Source of the DNA: a bacterium
GTDB taxonomy: Bacteria > 4484-113 > JALSIF01
Length of the DNA stretch: 8,723 nt
NCBI GenBank assembly: GCA_026981635.1
Contig: JALSIF010000302.1
Location: forward strand, 1-8,723
Reading direction: 5' to 3'
In this document: positions 2,082-7,358 of the stretch, one piece after another
Numbering within the stretch: the stretch's first letter is position 1
Layout of the letters: each line of letters begins with the position of its first letter
Notes under the pieces: generated by a model
What the model was told of the DNA's origin: nothing
What the model saw: only the letters and a program-made list of their open reading frames with translations
Database searches by the model: none
Program-made: the position numbers and the translations under genes

Positions 2082-3506
2082 CTAGCCTCTGCCGGAGCCA
2101 AGCAGGTAGCCTCTCATCCACTCGGCAAGCCCCACACCTCCCAGGTCATAGGGGCCGTTGGGACCAACTACGGTGTAGACCCCGCTTATCTGGTCAATCA
2201 CCACCAGGGCGAAGTCGTCCTGGTAGTAGTCGCTGCGGGAGAGGGCCACATAGACCATGTAGGTCATGTGGTCAATGTCCATCAGGTAGTTTTCCAGCTG
2301 CTCGCGGCCGCGGGGCATCACATCAGCCCAGGGATCCCGCTCACGCGCACCCGAGCGTCCCCGGCTGGGCTGGCGCAGGGGATCAAATCTCAGCGCCACC
2401 ACCTCCGGCTCAAGCTGATCCAGGGCCCGCATAAAGGCCACCTTGATGAAGTTGTTGCCCAGGTTCTTTACTCCCCGCTCGCGGGTAAGCAGGAAGTGGG
2501 CCAGGTTGACGGTGGCAGGGTCGTGATAAAGCTCCGGCAAACCCAGCTCATCGGGACTCACCTCCACGGTGGACTCGGTAATGCGGTCCTGCTGGATGGC
2601 CTGGGCAAATCTCTCCGCCTTTCCCGAGCGGTGGATGGCCTCCCGCAAGGGGTCCACGTCAAACCGCTCGGCCCCGGGGATGGGCGGGAGTCCCTCCCCC
2701 GCCCTGATGCTCAGCACCTTGCGGGGTGGGCGGCCAAGCTTCTCGCGGTAGTCCTCAAACAGGTTGCCGATGAGGCTGGCCTGGTCGGACCCCGTGGGGA
2801 GGGGATATACCCTGCCCTGGGCGAACTTGGTGGTGAAGGGAGCAAGATCATCACTGCCCAGGGTGCGGCCCACAAAGGGAGTGAGGGCGGGGCTACTTCC
2901 CCACTCCACCACCACCAGCCTGGGCCCCTGGATGCGGTCGCGGGAGGCAAGCTCCTCCACCTGCCGGCTGAATATCCACACCATCTGAACCGGGTCGGGC
3001 ATGATGTCGGGCGGCATCGCCCCCTGCTCCATCAGCCAGCTGGTGAAGTCCTCCGAATAGGCGGACACCACCGCGGGGTCAAGCTTTCTCAGGTTGGCAA
3101 GCAGGGAGCGGAGAGCATTGCGGTCATTCTCGGTGATCTCCTCCCACTGCTCCACGGTGCGCACCAGGGCATACTTCATGGCGTCGTCCAGTGGCTCAAT
3201 GTAGGGCTCGGACTGGACCACCAGCAGCCGGTCGTCCAGGTAGAGCCGCCTTATCCACTCCCTCAGGTGGCGCTCTATGCGGCGGCTCTCCTCCTCAATG
3301 GTGGGCGAGGGAAGCGGCCCCATCCTGAGCTCCAGCTTCTCCCTATACCAGATGGCGTCGGAGGTATCCACCTGGGCCGCTTCTGCTACCAGGGCAGACA
3401 GCCCTGGCTTTTCCTTCTGAATGGCCAGGAAGGCCACCACCCCCAGGGCAAGCAGCGTTACGGCAAGCCCGAAGATCCAGCGCGGTCCTCTTCCCAGTCG
3501 GGTCAT
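2082..3506 (-). CDS. Membrane-anchored protein of unknown function
   Basis: 474 residues that I do not recognise. A short basic N-terminus (MTRLGRGPR) is followed by one strongly hydrophobic segment at about residues 11-29, with no convincing signal-peptidase site. The rest is soluble-looking, so it is probably anchored in the inner membrane with about 440 residues outside. The body is rich in Arg, Glu and Leu. Features include a helical charged region at about 70-115, an alternating hydrophobic stretch PRLVVVEWG near residue 195, a low-complexity basic loop (RQPSRGRSGARERD) near 380-395, and a C-terminal segment with many aromatics (about 400-430, containing YMVYVALSRSDYYQDDF). No catalytic motif is evident. 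An excellent Shine-Dalgarno (AGGAGG, 8 nt spacing) fixes the ATG. It lies 53 bp after the Tat-exported phosphatase-superfamily gene, so the two probably act together at the cell envelope. This is inference from position only. Confidence 0.85.
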   Translation of the reverse strand: MTRLGRGPRWIFGLAVTLLALGVVAFLAIQKEKPGLSALVAEAAQVDTSDAIWYREKLELRMGPLPSPTIEEESRRIERHLREWIRRLYLDDRLLVVQSEPYIEPLDDAMKYALVRTVEQWEEITENDRNALRSLLANLRKLDPAVVSAYSEDFTSWLMEQGAMPPDIMPDPVQMVWIFSRQVEELASRDRIQGPRLVVVEWGSSPALTPFVGRTLGSDDLAPFTTKFAQGRVYPLPTGSDQASLIGNLFEDYREKLGRPPRKVLSIRAGEGLPPIPGAERFDVDPLREAIHRSGKAERFAQAIQQDRITESTVEVSPDELGLPELYHDPATVNLAHFLLTRERGVKNLGNNFIKVAFMRALDQLEPEVVALRFDPLRQPSRGRSGARERDPWADVMPRGREQLENYLMDIDHMTYMVYVALSRSDYYQDDFALVVIDQISGVYTVVGPNGPYDLGGVGLAEWMRGYLLGSGRG

Positions 3507-4892: not shown

Positions 4893-5174
4893 CTAATCGT
4901 TTAGCGCCCGCTCAAAGGTGTCTACCAGCTCGGCTATTACCTCTTCTGCCTTGTACTCATCAGGGCTGGTCATCGCCTCCTTGACACAGGTGCGCAGGTG
5001 GTCCTCAAGTATGATGGAACTGATCCGGTTGATGGCGTTTCTGGCCGCTATCAGCTGATTGACGATGTCAATGCAGTAGTCACCCCGCTCAATCATCACC
5101 TCTACGCCCCTGAGCTGACCCTGAGCACGAGCCAGGCGATTCTTCAGCCGGCGCTTAAGTTCGTCACTCAGCAT
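4893..5174 (-). CDS. csoR: CsoR-type copper-sensing transcriptional repressor (DUF156 family)
   Basis: 93 residues, the normal size for the all-helical CsoR/RcnR/FrmR/CstR family. These proteins bind DNA as tetramers and release it on binding metal or reacting with a small molecule. The family N-terminus (KRRLKNRLARAQGQLRGVEVMIE, residues 7-29) is clear. The sensor positions read C34 (GDYCIDIV), H59 and C63 (EDHLRTC). This is the Cys-His-Cys set that binds Cu(I) in characterised CsoR proteins. RcnR (Ni/Co) would have His at the last position plus an N-terminal His, and CstR lacks the middle His. Copper is therefore the likely signal (family knowledge plus residues seen). No copper exporter or chaperone gene is in the window, so the targets lie elsewhere. 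No Shine-Dalgarno precedes the ATG; TAGAAT ends 7 nt upstream. It probably represses itself through the G/C-tract inverted repeat at 5210-5238. Confidence 0.92.
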   Translation of the reverse strand: MLSDELKRRLKNRLARAQGQLRGVEVMIERGDYCIDIVNQLIAARNAINRISSIILEDHLRTCVKEAMTSPDEYKAEEVIAELVDTFERALND

Positions 5175-5209: not shown

Positions 5210-5238
5210 TTAACCCCTATAAGCCCAGAGAGGGGTAA
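5210..5238. promoter_or_regulatory. Candidate CsoR operator between csoR and tRNA-Arg
   Basis: TTAACCCC (5210-5217) and GGGGTAA (5232-5238) form an interrupted inverted repeat with a 14-bp spacer, upstream of csoR. Known CsoR operators are dyads with TACCC/GGGTA-type arms, which fits the arm sequence. The spacer is longer than in most characterised sites, so this is tentative. The right arm adjoins an A/T-rich stretch (TAAAAT, 5239-5244) that may be the -10 box of the tRNA gene. Confidence 0.35.
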
Positions 5239-5257: not shown

Positions 5258-5334
5258 GCCCCCGTAGCTCAAACGGATAGAGCAGCGGCCTTCTAAGCCG
5301 TTGGTTGCAGGTTCGAGTCCTGCCGGGGGCACCA
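5258..5334 (+). tRNA. tRNA-Arg (anticodon UCU), CCA encoded
   Basis: A full cloverleaf can be drawn. The acceptor arm GCCCCCG pairs with CGGGGGC, and the D arm is GCTC/GAGC with GG in the loop. The anticodon stem GCGGC/GCCGT holds loop CTTCTAA, so the anticodon is TCT at 5292-5294. A 5-nt variable region follows, then T arm GCAGG/CCTGC around TTCGAGT. The discriminator A and an encoded CCA end it. It decodes AGA (and AGG by wobble). The arginine identity elements C35 and, by loop position, A20 are present. A TAAAAT box 13 nt upstream (5239-5244) is a possible -10. No clear terminator follows directly; the weak plus-strand hairpin at 5520-5546 is the first candidate. Confidence 0.97.
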
Positions 5335-5353: not shown

Positions 5354-5371
5354 TTGCCTTGGAGCAGGCAA
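5354..5371. repeat. Small hairpin downstream of tRNA-Arg
   Basis: TTGCCT and AGGCAA form a perfect 6-bp inverted repeat around TGGAGC, 20 nt past the tRNA CCA end. On the plus strand an A-run follows it, so it is not a standard terminator, though it could guide 3' trailer processing. Its right arm overlaps the U-run of the minus-strand RNA terminator. Confidence 0.3.
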
Positions 5372-5427
5372 AAAAAGAACCACCGGGCTCGGGATGAGAG
5401 CAGATCGCTATATCTCTGCCCGGTGGT
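5370..5427 (-). terminator. Intrinsic terminator of the candidate RNA gene
   Basis: On the minus strand ACCACCGGGC (5427-5418) pairs with GCCCGGUGGU (5388-5379), a 10-bp GC-rich stem, followed by UCUUUUUUU. The 29-nt apical part contains a further short stem, AGAU (5415-5412) with AUCU (5405-5402). Stem length and U-run are those of a strong Rho-independent terminator. Confidence 0.8.
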
Positions 5428-5504
5428 CGGTCGGTCCGGGGTTCTACCCGCCTGGGCGTGCTACTGGGACTTGGCCTCTCGGCCCGGGTGCCCCAGTCCG
5501 ACGC
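5370..5504 (-). ncRNA. Candidate stable structured RNA gene, about 135 nt, family unknown
   Basis: This stretch has its own consensus promoter upstream and a strong intrinsic terminator at its end, with no plausible reading frame between. Transcription should start near 5502-5504 and stop near 5370. Helices that can be drawn in the RNA are: P1, GUCGG (5502-5498) with CCGAC (5434-5430); P2, ACUGGGG (5497-5491) with UCCCAGU (5469-5463); P3, GGCC/GGCC with a GAGA loop (5484-5473); a possible pseudoknot, ACCCG (5489-5485) with CGGGU (5450-5446); and the terminal hairpin. P1 and P2 are directly adjacent. A different nested fold pairs GGGG (5494-5491) with CCCC (5441-5438). Three tandem GACC units lie at 5436-5425. 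It lacks the SRP RNA core and does not fold as a 6S-like long rod. The next minus-strand gene, csoR, begins 195 nt beyond the end, across the oppositely oriented tRNA, so a free RNA is more likely than a leader. Confidence 0.6.
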
Positions 5505-5509
5505 AGATG

Positions 5510-5537
5510 ATTATACCCATTTGACCCACCCTGTCAA
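5510..5537 (-). promoter_or_regulatory. Consensus promoter of the candidate RNA gene
   Basis: On the minus strand, perfect TTGACA (5537-5532), 16 nt, then perfect TATAAT (5515-5510). The region just upstream (5538-5558 on the plus strand) is A/T-rich with runs of 7 T and 5 A, resembling an UP element. It is the only match to both hexamers that I see in the window, and it looks like a stable-RNA promoter. Confidence 0.75.
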
Positions 5538-5546
5538 GCTTTTTTT
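5520..5546 (+). terminator. Weak plus-strand terminator overlapping the RNA promoter
   Basis: TTGAC (5521-5525) pairs with GTCAA (5533-5537) across a 7-nt loop, with a T-G pair outside, and is followed by GC and seven T. The stem is short and A/T-rich but the T-run is good. It could end read-through from tRNA-Arg before the hydrolase gene. Its right arm is the -35 box of the minus-strand promoter, so the symmetry may be coincidental. Confidence 0.4.
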
Positions 5547-5610
5547 CAAAAATTGGGTCTCTTACCCCGCCCCTTACCCCAAGTATGGAACCTAACTCCC
5601 CAACCGGGAG

Positions 5611-5622: not shown

Positions 5623-6501
5623 ATGGGAAGGTCCATTCTGCCTAAGGCTCCTGCCACCTTTATCCCCGTTCTCCTCCTCGTTGCCCTGCTCACTTCACCT
5701 ACCCCCAGCTACGGTCAGGGGAAGCTCATCAAGGTCATCTACGGCCCCGAGTTTTCCTCCATGAAGCTGGCCCTGCCCACCGGAAGTCCGGTTGAACTGG
5801 CCGGTGGCTTTAAGGGGTTTCTGGTTACTCCCAAGGAGTCGGGAGAGGAAGTACCGCTTCTGGTGCTGCTTCACGAACATGGCGGACGGGGCGACACCTT
5901 TGCCAGCATAAGCCGCTATGTAAAGATCAAGTCCGCCTACATCCTCTCCATCCAGGGCCGCTTCAGGGCGGTCACCCCGGAGGGGGAGAAGATGGACGGC
6001 TACTCCTGGTGGGAGCTTGGCCCAGACAGCACTGAGCAGAGTCAGCACGACTCCCTGGTCAGGGAAAGCCAGGCACTGGATGAGGCCATCCAGCAGTTCC
6101 TCCACAGCCAGCCCACCATTGACCCCAACAAGGTGGTTCTGATTGGCTTCGCCCAGGGATCCAGGATGGCCCAGGAACTGGCCGGTCGCTTCCCCAGCCA
6201 CTATGCCGGGGTGGTTCTATTTGGCGGCTACGGTGAGCTGGAGGCTGACTGGAAGAGCAGCCTAAGCCAGACCGGCACCCCGCCCAGCTTTTTCATCTCC
6301 ATTGGGGATGGTGACAAGCACACCCCCCTGGAGCTGGCCAAACAGCTCAAGTCCGACCTGGAAAGTCTGGGAGCCGATGTAATCCTCACCTACGTAAACA
6401 AGACCCACCAGATCATTGCCAGCGAATTTGACCAGATGAACCGCTGGCTCGGCAAGCTACTGGGCTATCCCCTTGTTGGCACTGCGGGCATCTCCTCCTA
6501 G
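5623..6501 (+). CDS. Exported alpha/beta-hydrolase (esterase-like) lacking the nucleophile serine
   Basis: 292 residues. Residues 1-31 form a Sec signal peptide (hydrophobic core about 13-25, likely cleavage after SYG). The mature part matches the phospholipase/carboxylesterase branch of alpha/beta-hydrolases: an oxyanion-region LLVLLHEHGGRGDTF (79-93), a nucleophile-elbow strand VVLIGFAQGSRMAQELAGRFP, ISIGDGDKHTP with the acid D231, and a final His at 262 (NKTHQI). Family members carry GFSQGG with Ser as nucleophile. Here the elbow is G-F-A-Q-G-S, so A177 (codon GCC, 6151-6153) replaces it, one base from a Ser codon. S180 is three residues off and cannot sit at the elbow tip. The protein may be a non-catalytic binding relative, or use another residue. 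It is followed after 41 bp by another exported protein and then a transporter, suggesting one operon. Confidence 0.85.
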   Translation: MGRSILPKAPATFIPVLLLVALLTSPTPSYGQGKLIKVIYGPEFSSMKLALPTGSPVELAGGFKGFLVTPKESGEEVPLLVLLHEHGGRGDTFASISRYVKIKSAYILSIQGRFRAVTPEGEKMDGYSWWELGPDSTEQSQHDSLVRESQALDEAIQQFLHSQPTIDPNKVVLIGFAQGSRMAQELAGRFPSHYAGVVLFGGYGELEADWKSSLSQTGTPPSFFISIGDGDKHTPLELAKQLKSDLESLGADVILTYVNKTHQIIASEFDQMNRWLGKLLGYPLVGTAGISS

Positions 6502-6529: not shown

Positions 6530-6552
6530 CTCTGCCCGGCTGATGGGCAGAG
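6530..6552 (+). promoter_or_regulatory. Perfect 8-bp hairpin covering the start codon of the next gene
   Basis: CTCTGCCC (6530-6537) and GGGCAGAG (6545-6552) form a perfect 8-bp stem with a 7-nt loop (ggctgat). The ATG at 6543-6545 spans the loop and the first pair. No T-run follows, so it is not an intrinsic terminator. It could block or tune translation of the downstream gene, or bind a regulator as DNA. There is no obvious Shine-Dalgarno between it and the previous stop. Confidence 0.5.
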
Positions 6553-7358
6553 CCACACCACTGCGATTAGGATCTCCATCGTTTGGGCTGGTTCTCCTCT
6601 CCTCCTTCCTACTCCTTACCCTCTCAGCCCATGCCACCCCCAACCGCTTCCCCCGTCTGCTTGACTACTTCGTTCCCTACCTGGACGACTGGGAGATTGC
6701 CACCTCCCTGCTGGAAGGCAAACCTGAGGAGGGAAAGGCAATCTTTGCCGAGCTATACGAGCGCACCGACCGAGAGGGGGCCCATCTGGTTCTGGCCGAA
6801 CTTGACCTGCTTGGCCGGGTAATGGTGGCGGCAGAGCTTATGGGGAAGGGGGAAATACCCCCCGCCAAGCTTTTTGCCTACCCCCTGAAGGGGGACCTTA
6901 CCAACTCGCTGGGGCTGGTTGAGGTGGAGGTACTGGTGGTGGAAGGAGACCAGAGGCGCTACGAGAAGCGACTGGTCAGTCTGGCCCGCTGCTGGCGGGA
7001 ACTTGACCGCTTCAGGGACAGGCTAGGTCAGGCCCTCATTGGGAGGACGATGCCCCAGGCTGCCCTAGCCATGCTAGAACTCATCGCCTCACCCCCAGGC
7101 TTTCCCGAACTGAGGGGGGAGCTGGTGGAGGAGATGGGGGAAGGGGGAGAGGAGGAGCTCTGGTTAAGAAAGCTCTTTGCTCCCCTGCGCGAGCCCCTGC
7201 TTCTCATCTCAGTCCGGCTAAGCAGCGAGCTCTCCAAGCAGGAGGAAGTGGATGACCAAACCCGCCAACTACTTTCCCGCTTTGCCGAGCTTAGCCTGAA
7301 ACAGGCCCGCCGCTCAGCCATCCCGCTGGCAAGCCTCACCCCACCCGAGGGAGGGTAA
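6543..7358 (+). CDS. Exported protein of unknown function, Leu/Glu-rich helical
   Basis: 271 residues that I do not recognise. The N-terminus is a Sec signal peptide: basic MGRATPLRLGS, hydrophobic LVLLSSFLLLTL at about 16-27, and a probable cut after SAHA (residue 31). The mature part is rich in Leu, Glu, Arg and Ala and looks mostly helical. Short repeated helix-turn patterns suggest a tetratricopeptide-like or other alpha-solenoid fold (inference from composition only). One Cys (in LARCWREL) is present, and no catalytic motif is seen. The ATG at 6543 is chosen because it gives a complete signal peptide and no other start lies upstream of the hydrophobic core in frame. It begins 41 bp after the hydrolase stop and ends 15 bp before the transporter ATG, so a shared operon is likely. 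The start lies inside a perfect hairpin. Confidence 0.8.
   Translation: MGRATPLRLGSPSFGLVLLSSFLLLTLSAHATPNRFPRLLDYFVPYLDDWEIATSLLEGKPEEGKAIFAELYERTDREGAHLVLAELDLLGRVMVAAELMGKGEIPPAKLFAYPLKGDLTNSLGLVEVEVLVVEGDQRRYEKRLVSLARCWRELDRFRDRLGQALIGRTMPQAALAMLELIASPPGFPELRGELVEEMGEGGEEELWLRKLFAPLREPLLLISVRLSSELSKQEEVDDQTRQLLSRFAELSLKQARRSAIPLASLTPPEGG

What the first reader, a model, noticed from the sequence alone, without database searches (positions are those of the whole stretch)
5370..5557. Possible new stable RNA gene with near-ideal promoter and terminator
On the minus strand a UP-like A/T stretch, perfect TTGACA, 16 nt, perfect TATAAT, about 135 nt of GC-rich non-coding sequence, and a 10-bp terminator plus UCUUUUUUU form a complete transcription unit next to a tRNA gene. 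I see no other promoter this strong in the window, so the product should be abundant. I could not match it to SRP RNA, 6S RNA, tmRNA, RNase P RNA or common riboswitches, so it may be a lineage-specific or strongly diverged housekeeping RNA.
Basis: partly seen in the sequence, partly recalled or inferred. Interest (0 to 1): 0.75.

Follow-up and report, generated by a model that had tools for sequence, protein, structure and literature searches.

The report
Orphan small RNA gene, consensus promoter
A short stretch between a tRNA gene and an esterase gene carries all the signals of a strongly transcribed, non-coding small RNA of about 134 bases that matches no known RNA and has no detectable relative, so it is very probably a real but lineage-specific small RNA of unknown target.

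Summary
On the minus strand an A/T tract, TTGACA-16-TATAAT, about 134 nt without a usable start codon, a perfect 10-bp stem and UCU7 form a complete transcription unit. The perfect promoter pair is not chance: it occurs twice in this 1.75-Mb genome (about 0.1 expected), and the other copy precedes tRNA-Gly. Across ten genomes of the class there are 85 matches against 2 for a reversed control, many in front of 5S rRNA, tRNA, ribosomal-protein, groES and lexA genes. The RNA matches no Rfam family, and 6S, SRP and 5S RNA all lie elsewhere in the genome, so it is none of these. Searches of 60 genomes by DNA and by a single-sequence covariance model found no homologue. The same method recovers 6S RNA in 4 of 8 class relatives tested and SRP RNA in 6 of 8. 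So 'strong small-RNA gene' is supported; 'diverged housekeeping RNA' is not, because the RNA is less conserved than 6S. The structure is mostly the terminator hairpin. Covariation is untestable because only one sequence exists. Most likely it is an orphan, lineage-specific regulatory sRNA: a new member of a known kind, with transcription and target unproven.

The parts
5538..5557 (-). A/T-rich UP-like stretch upstream of the -35 box (CCCAATTTTTGAAAAAAAGC)
   Evidence: read directly
5532..5537 (-). -35 box TTGACA (6/6)
5510..5515 (-). -10 box TATAAT (6/6), 16-nt spacer
   Evidence: two perfect pairs in the genome
5370..5504 (-). predicted small RNA, about 134 nt; start at G5504 inferred from spacing to the -10 box
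   Evidence: no Rfam match; no homologue
5429..5504 (-). 5' domain: P1 GUCGG/CCGAC enclosing P2 ACUGGGGC/GUCCCAGU capped by GGCC-GAGA-GGCC (predicted fold only; z -1.4)
5370..5427 (-). intrinsic terminator: 10-bp GC-rich stem with a 29-nt partly paired loop, then UC-U7
   Evidence: z -4.6 for the hairpin
5520..5547 (+). possible weak terminator for the opposite (tRNA-Arg) strand, TTTGAC-CCACCCT-GTCAA-GC-T7, overlapping the -35 box
   Evidence: -3.1 kcal/mol; dyad unique in the genome

Best explanation
It is an independent, lineage-specific small-RNA gene. The housekeeping sigma factor starts at about 5504 (minus strand) from a consensus promoter, transcribes about 134 nt of non-coding RNA, and stops at the U-tract near 5370, before the convergent tRNA-Arg gene. 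The RNA most likely acts in trans as a constitutively made regulator, pairing with mRNAs through the unpaired stretch between P2 and P1 (roughly AGCACGCCCAGGCGGGUAGAACC) or through the terminator loop. Shown: sequence signals, their rarity, lack of coding capacity, lack of known family or homologue. Inferred: transcription, abundance, stability and trans-acting pairing; the target is unknown.
For: Perfect promoter pair, 2 in the genome against 0.1 expected. In ten class genomes 85 pairs against 2 reversed controls, with products including 5S rRNA, tRNAs, S2/S15/S20/L28/L32, GroES, LexA, HU and DnaK. Terminator hairpin z -4.6 with 0 of 500 shuffles as stable, then U7. No start codon usable for a peptide. 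A co-oriented promoter and terminator 40-500 bp apart is the top-scoring criterion in a published sRNA scan; in the same paper 14 of 18 candidate regions, chosen mainly by sRNAPredictHT and manual curation, were detected experimentally (PMC2573895).
Against: No homologue in any genome searched, so neither conservation nor covariation supports function. The 5' domain folds only slightly better than shuffled sequence (z -1.4, 40 of 500 as stable). No transcript data. No target or partner protein was tested, so the trans-pairing step is weak (the confidence given is for the sRNA gene; for trans pairing as its mode of action I would say about 0.45).
Confidence: 0.72

Rival explanations
1. It is a cis-acting leader: a strong promoter followed by a regulated terminator (attenuator or riboswitch) that controls read-through into csoR on the same strand.
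For: Same strand as csoR; a folded domain just before an intrinsic terminator is the typical layout.
Against: About 195 nt, including a whole tRNA gene in antisense, lie between the U-tract and csoR; csoR has its own operator-like repeat ACCCCT/AGGGGT just upstream (about 5213-5236); no Rfam riboswitch match; no alternative pairing seen that would break the 10-bp stem.
Confidence: 0.08
2. It is a strongly diverged known housekeeping RNA (6S, SRP, 5S, or another family) that Rfam fails to recognise.
For: Promoter strength like that of 5S and tRNA genes; size in the range of 5S, 6S and SRP RNA.
Against: 6S (51 bits), SRP (57 bits) and 5S (102 bits) RNA are each found elsewhere in the same genome; nothing relevant in Rfam even at E up to 10; too short for tmRNA or RNase P.
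Confidence: 0.04
3. It is a trans-acting RNA that works by binding a protein (a decoy or scaffold, as 6S or CsrB do) rather than by base pairing.
For: Strong constitutive-type promoter and compact GC-rich fold.
Against: No 6S-like single long helix with a central bubble; GGA occurs only twice in the RNA and in no hairpin loop of the predicted fold (read); no protein partner known. Hfq, CsrA and ProQ were not searched for.
Confidence: 0.1
4. The promoter-terminator pair is fortuitous or decayed: the TTGAC-N7-GTCAA dyad belongs to a terminator for the opposite tRNA-Arg unit, and no functional RNA is made.
For: The -35 box lies inside that dyad, which is followed by T7 on the plus strand; the tRNA has no other T-tract terminator nearby.
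Against: The dyad does not explain the TATAAT at the right spacing, the A/T tract, or a separate 10-bp stem plus U7 on the minus strand; all of these together by chance are very unlikely.
Confidence: 0.06

Closest known systems
Intergenic bacterial sRNA genes found as orphan sigma70 promoter plus Rho-independent terminator (for example the S. meliloti set, PMC2573895)
   Same: Own promoter and intrinsic terminator 40-500 bp apart, between genes, no ORF, folded GC-rich transcript
   Different: No homologue in any genome searched; promoter is a 12/12 match; not verified experimentally
6S RNA (RF00013)
   Same: Non-coding RNA of similar length from its own promoter
   Different: No match to the model, different predicted fold, and the genome's 6S RNA is on another contig
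Bacterial small SRP RNA (RF00169)
   Same: GC-rich, about 100-130 nt
   Different: No match to the model; the genome's SRP RNA is on another contig
5S rRNA of the class (RF00001)
   Same: In G003, G006 and G007 the 5S gene also follows a perfect promoter and ends in a U-tract at about +125
   Different: No match to the model; the genome's own 5S is on contig C3

Membership tests
Independent bacterial sRNA gene (general kind) | own promoter | tested here: met
   12/12 sigma70 pair, 2 in genome against 0.1 expected; by sequence only
Independent bacterial sRNA gene (general kind) | own intrinsic terminator | tested here: met
   10-bp stem plus UCU7, hairpin z -4.6; by sequence only
Independent bacterial sRNA gene (general kind) | non-coding | tested here: met
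   no ATG/TTG; only GTG lies in the terminator stem
Independent bacterial sRNA gene (general kind) | detected transcript | not testable with these tools
   no transcript data
Independent bacterial sRNA gene (general kind) | conserved sequence or covarying structure | tested here: inconclusive
   single sequence only; no homologue in 60 genomes including nine of the class; no other genome of its own family or genus appeared among the relatives
6S RNA (RF00013) | match to the family model | tested here: not met
   real 6S at G000:C2
Bacterial small SRP RNA (RF00169) | match to the family model | tested here: not met
   real SRP RNA at G000:C158
5S rRNA (RF00001) | match to the family model | tested here: not met
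   real 5S at G000:C3
tmRNA / RNase P RNA | match to family model, length 300 nt or more | tested here: not met
   no Rfam or ARAGORN match; about 134 nt. Whether the genome has its own copies elsewhere was not searched.
Riboswitch / T-box leader | match to a known family and a co-directional gene directly downstream | tested here: not met
   no Rfam match; next co-directional gene about 195 nt away beyond an antisense tRNA gene

The most novel reading that the evidence does not exclude
An abundant structured RNA specific to a deep, poorly sampled bacterial lineage, expressed at the level of rRNA and tRNA genes, that carries out a cellular role of a kind not yet described.
Probability: 0.06. 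Interest if true: 0.65.

Novelty: new member of a known kind. Interest (0 to 1): 0.33.

Why it matters
If transcribed, it would be one of the most strongly promoted genes of this organism and a first regulatory RNA of its lineage. It is otherwise the expected sort of find: bacterial lineages commonly have sRNAs that neither Rfam nor homology search can see (general knowledge). The promoter census gives a practical rule for this class: a perfect sigma70 pair is almost always real and often points to highly expressed genes.

Tried and rejected
Rfam at gathering and at E up to 10: only the tRNA, and a chance HepC_CRE match at E 0.31. Missing 6S, SRP or 5S RNA: rejected, each is elsewhere in the genome. 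blastn in 60 genomes: scattered 15-42-nt pieces only, none covering the RNA. Single-sequence model R1: best match outside this locus 21.5 bits (G018, E 0.06), inside a long open frame that looks like ffh by eye; weaker ones scattered, mostly within long open frames. Synteny through csoR, tRNA-Arg and the esterase: R1 finds nothing in those loci. Dyad TTGAC-N7-GTCAA as a regulon operator: occurs once in the genome. 16S 3'-end or Shine-Dalgarno complementarity: none. Phages, plasmids, one viral-contig pattern: none. Literature on CC2171 gave no paper.

Full report
What is there. On the minus strand, reading down from 5557, the sequence has an A/T tract (AATTTTTGAAAAAAA), TTGACA at 5537-5532, a 16-nt spacer, TATAAT at 5515-5510, a purine suitable for initiation at 5504, about 134 nt without a usable start codon, a perfect 10-bp inverted repeat ACCACCGGGC/GCCCGGTGGT with 29 nt between the arms, and TCTTTTTTT ending at 5370. 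The tRNA-Arg(UCU) gene at 5258-5334 is on the other strand and convergent; csoR (4893-5174, minus; Pfam Trns_repr_metal) lies beyond it, and an Abhydrolase_2-type esterase gene (5623-6501, plus) diverges from the promoter.

Is it more than chance? Base composition predicts 0.0005 perfect promoter pairs in the window and 0.1 in the genome. The 1.75-Mb genome has two, with none for the reversed pattern, and the other one drives tRNA-Gly. In ten genomes of the class the pattern occurs 85 times against 2 for the reversed control. I read what follows these promoters: 5S rRNA in three genomes (G003, G006 and G007), tRNA-Gly and tRNA-Arg genes, and many genes for ribosomal proteins S2, S15, S20, L28 and L32, GroES, LexA, HU and DnaK; one example of each protein type was confirmed with Pfam, the rest were recognised by eye. 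So in this class a perfect pair is almost always a real promoter and often marks highly expressed genes. The genome's own 6S, SRP and 5S promoters look weaker to the eye than this one.

Structure. The predicted fold (-60 kcal/mol) has a 5' domain (P1 GUCGG/CCGAC around P2 ACUGGGGC/GUCCCAGU capped by a GAGA tetraloop) and the terminator hairpin. The whole RNA is moderately more stable than shuffles (z -2.5 to -2.9), but most of that is the terminator hairpin (z -4.6); the 5' domain alone is not significant (z -1.4, 40 of 500 shuffles as stable). The details of the 5' fold are therefore only a model.

Is it a known RNA? Rfam gives only the tRNA at gathering thresholds and one chance match at E up to 10. 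The obvious candidates exist elsewhere in the same genome: 6S at G000:C2 (51 bits), SRP RNA at C158 (57 bits), 5S at C3 (102 bits). tmRNA and RNase P are excluded by length and by lack of a match.

Conservation. Among the genomes searched none shares genus, family or order with this one; nine are of the same class. blastn of the unit in 60 genomes gave only short scattered pieces. A covariance model made from this one sequence (R1) gave nothing convincing in 60 genomes, nor in 20 with laxer filters; the best outside match, 21.5 bits, lies in a long open frame that looks like ffh, and the weaker ones mostly lie within long open frames too. It found nothing in the loci holding the relatives' csoR, tRNA-Arg or esterase genes either. 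As a control I built the same kind of single-sequence model from this genome's 6S and SRP RNAs and searched the relatives' loci. The 6S model recovered 4 of 8 relatives, three of them at 49-53 bits; the SRP model recovered 6 of 8, but weakly, at 15-25 bits. Those control searches covered short loci, not whole genomes, so the weak recoveries would not all stand out genome-wide. So the RNA is clearly less conserved than 6S among the nearer class members; an SRP-like level of divergence could escape. Absence from phages, plasmids and one viral-contig pattern search adds little. With one sequence covariation cannot be tested.

How it most likely works. The simplest reading is an independent sRNA gene with a constitutive-type promoter, ending just before the convergent tRNA gene. 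Trans-acting pairing through the unpaired stretch between P2 and P1 or the terminator loop is my best guess for its action, but this is inference. The RNA has no complementarity to the 16S 3' end and no Shine-Dalgarno complement, and only 6-7-nt complementarity to the neighbouring csoR, esterase and tRNA sequences. A leader or attenuator of csoR is possible but unlikely: about 195 nt with a whole antisense tRNA gene intervene, and csoR has its own operator-like repeat.

A side feature. The -35 box lies in a dyad TTGAC-N7-GTCAA that, read on the plus strand, is a weak hairpin (-3.1 kcal/mol) followed by GCTTTTTTT. The tRNA-Arg unit has no nearer T-tract, so its primary transcript may run antisense through the whole sRNA gene. 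The dyad is unique in the genome, so it is not an obvious shared operator.

Verdict. The interpretation 'new stable RNA gene' is partly supported: a real, strongly promoted, lineage-specific sRNA gene is likely, while a diverged housekeeping RNA is not. A co-oriented promoter-terminator pair in an intergenic region is the established signature of sRNA genes; in the S. meliloti study 14 of 18 selected regions, chosen mainly by sRNAPredictHT and manual curation, were detected experimentally (PMC2573895). It is a new member of a known kind.

Noticed in passing
L152 (G004:C37), 545-743 +: In a class relative, a perfect promoter drives a different non-coding RNA of about 165 nt with a 9-bp terminator and U10, convergent with an enolase-like gene (named by eye). 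It carries AAAGGAGGUGAUCCAGU near its 5' end, complementary to the 16S rRNA 3' end, and matches RF01867 (Caulobacter sRNA CC2171) weakly (18.4 bits, E 0.05) through that same motif.
   Followed up: partly
window 5211-5238: Inverted repeat ACCCCT/AGGGGT between csoR and tRNA-Arg, placed like an autoregulatory CsoR operator.
   Followed up: no
window 5520-5547 +: Weak terminator-like dyad plus T7 on the plus strand, overlapping the sRNA promoter; tRNA-Arg read-through would be antisense to the sRNA.
   Followed up: partly
G000 C24, C33, C146 (L088, L090, L089): The genome has three further CsoR-type proteins (27-40% identity), while most class relatives have none detected with this query.
   Followed up: no
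window 2082-3506 - and 6543-7358 +: Two long open frames without any Pfam match.
   Followed up: no
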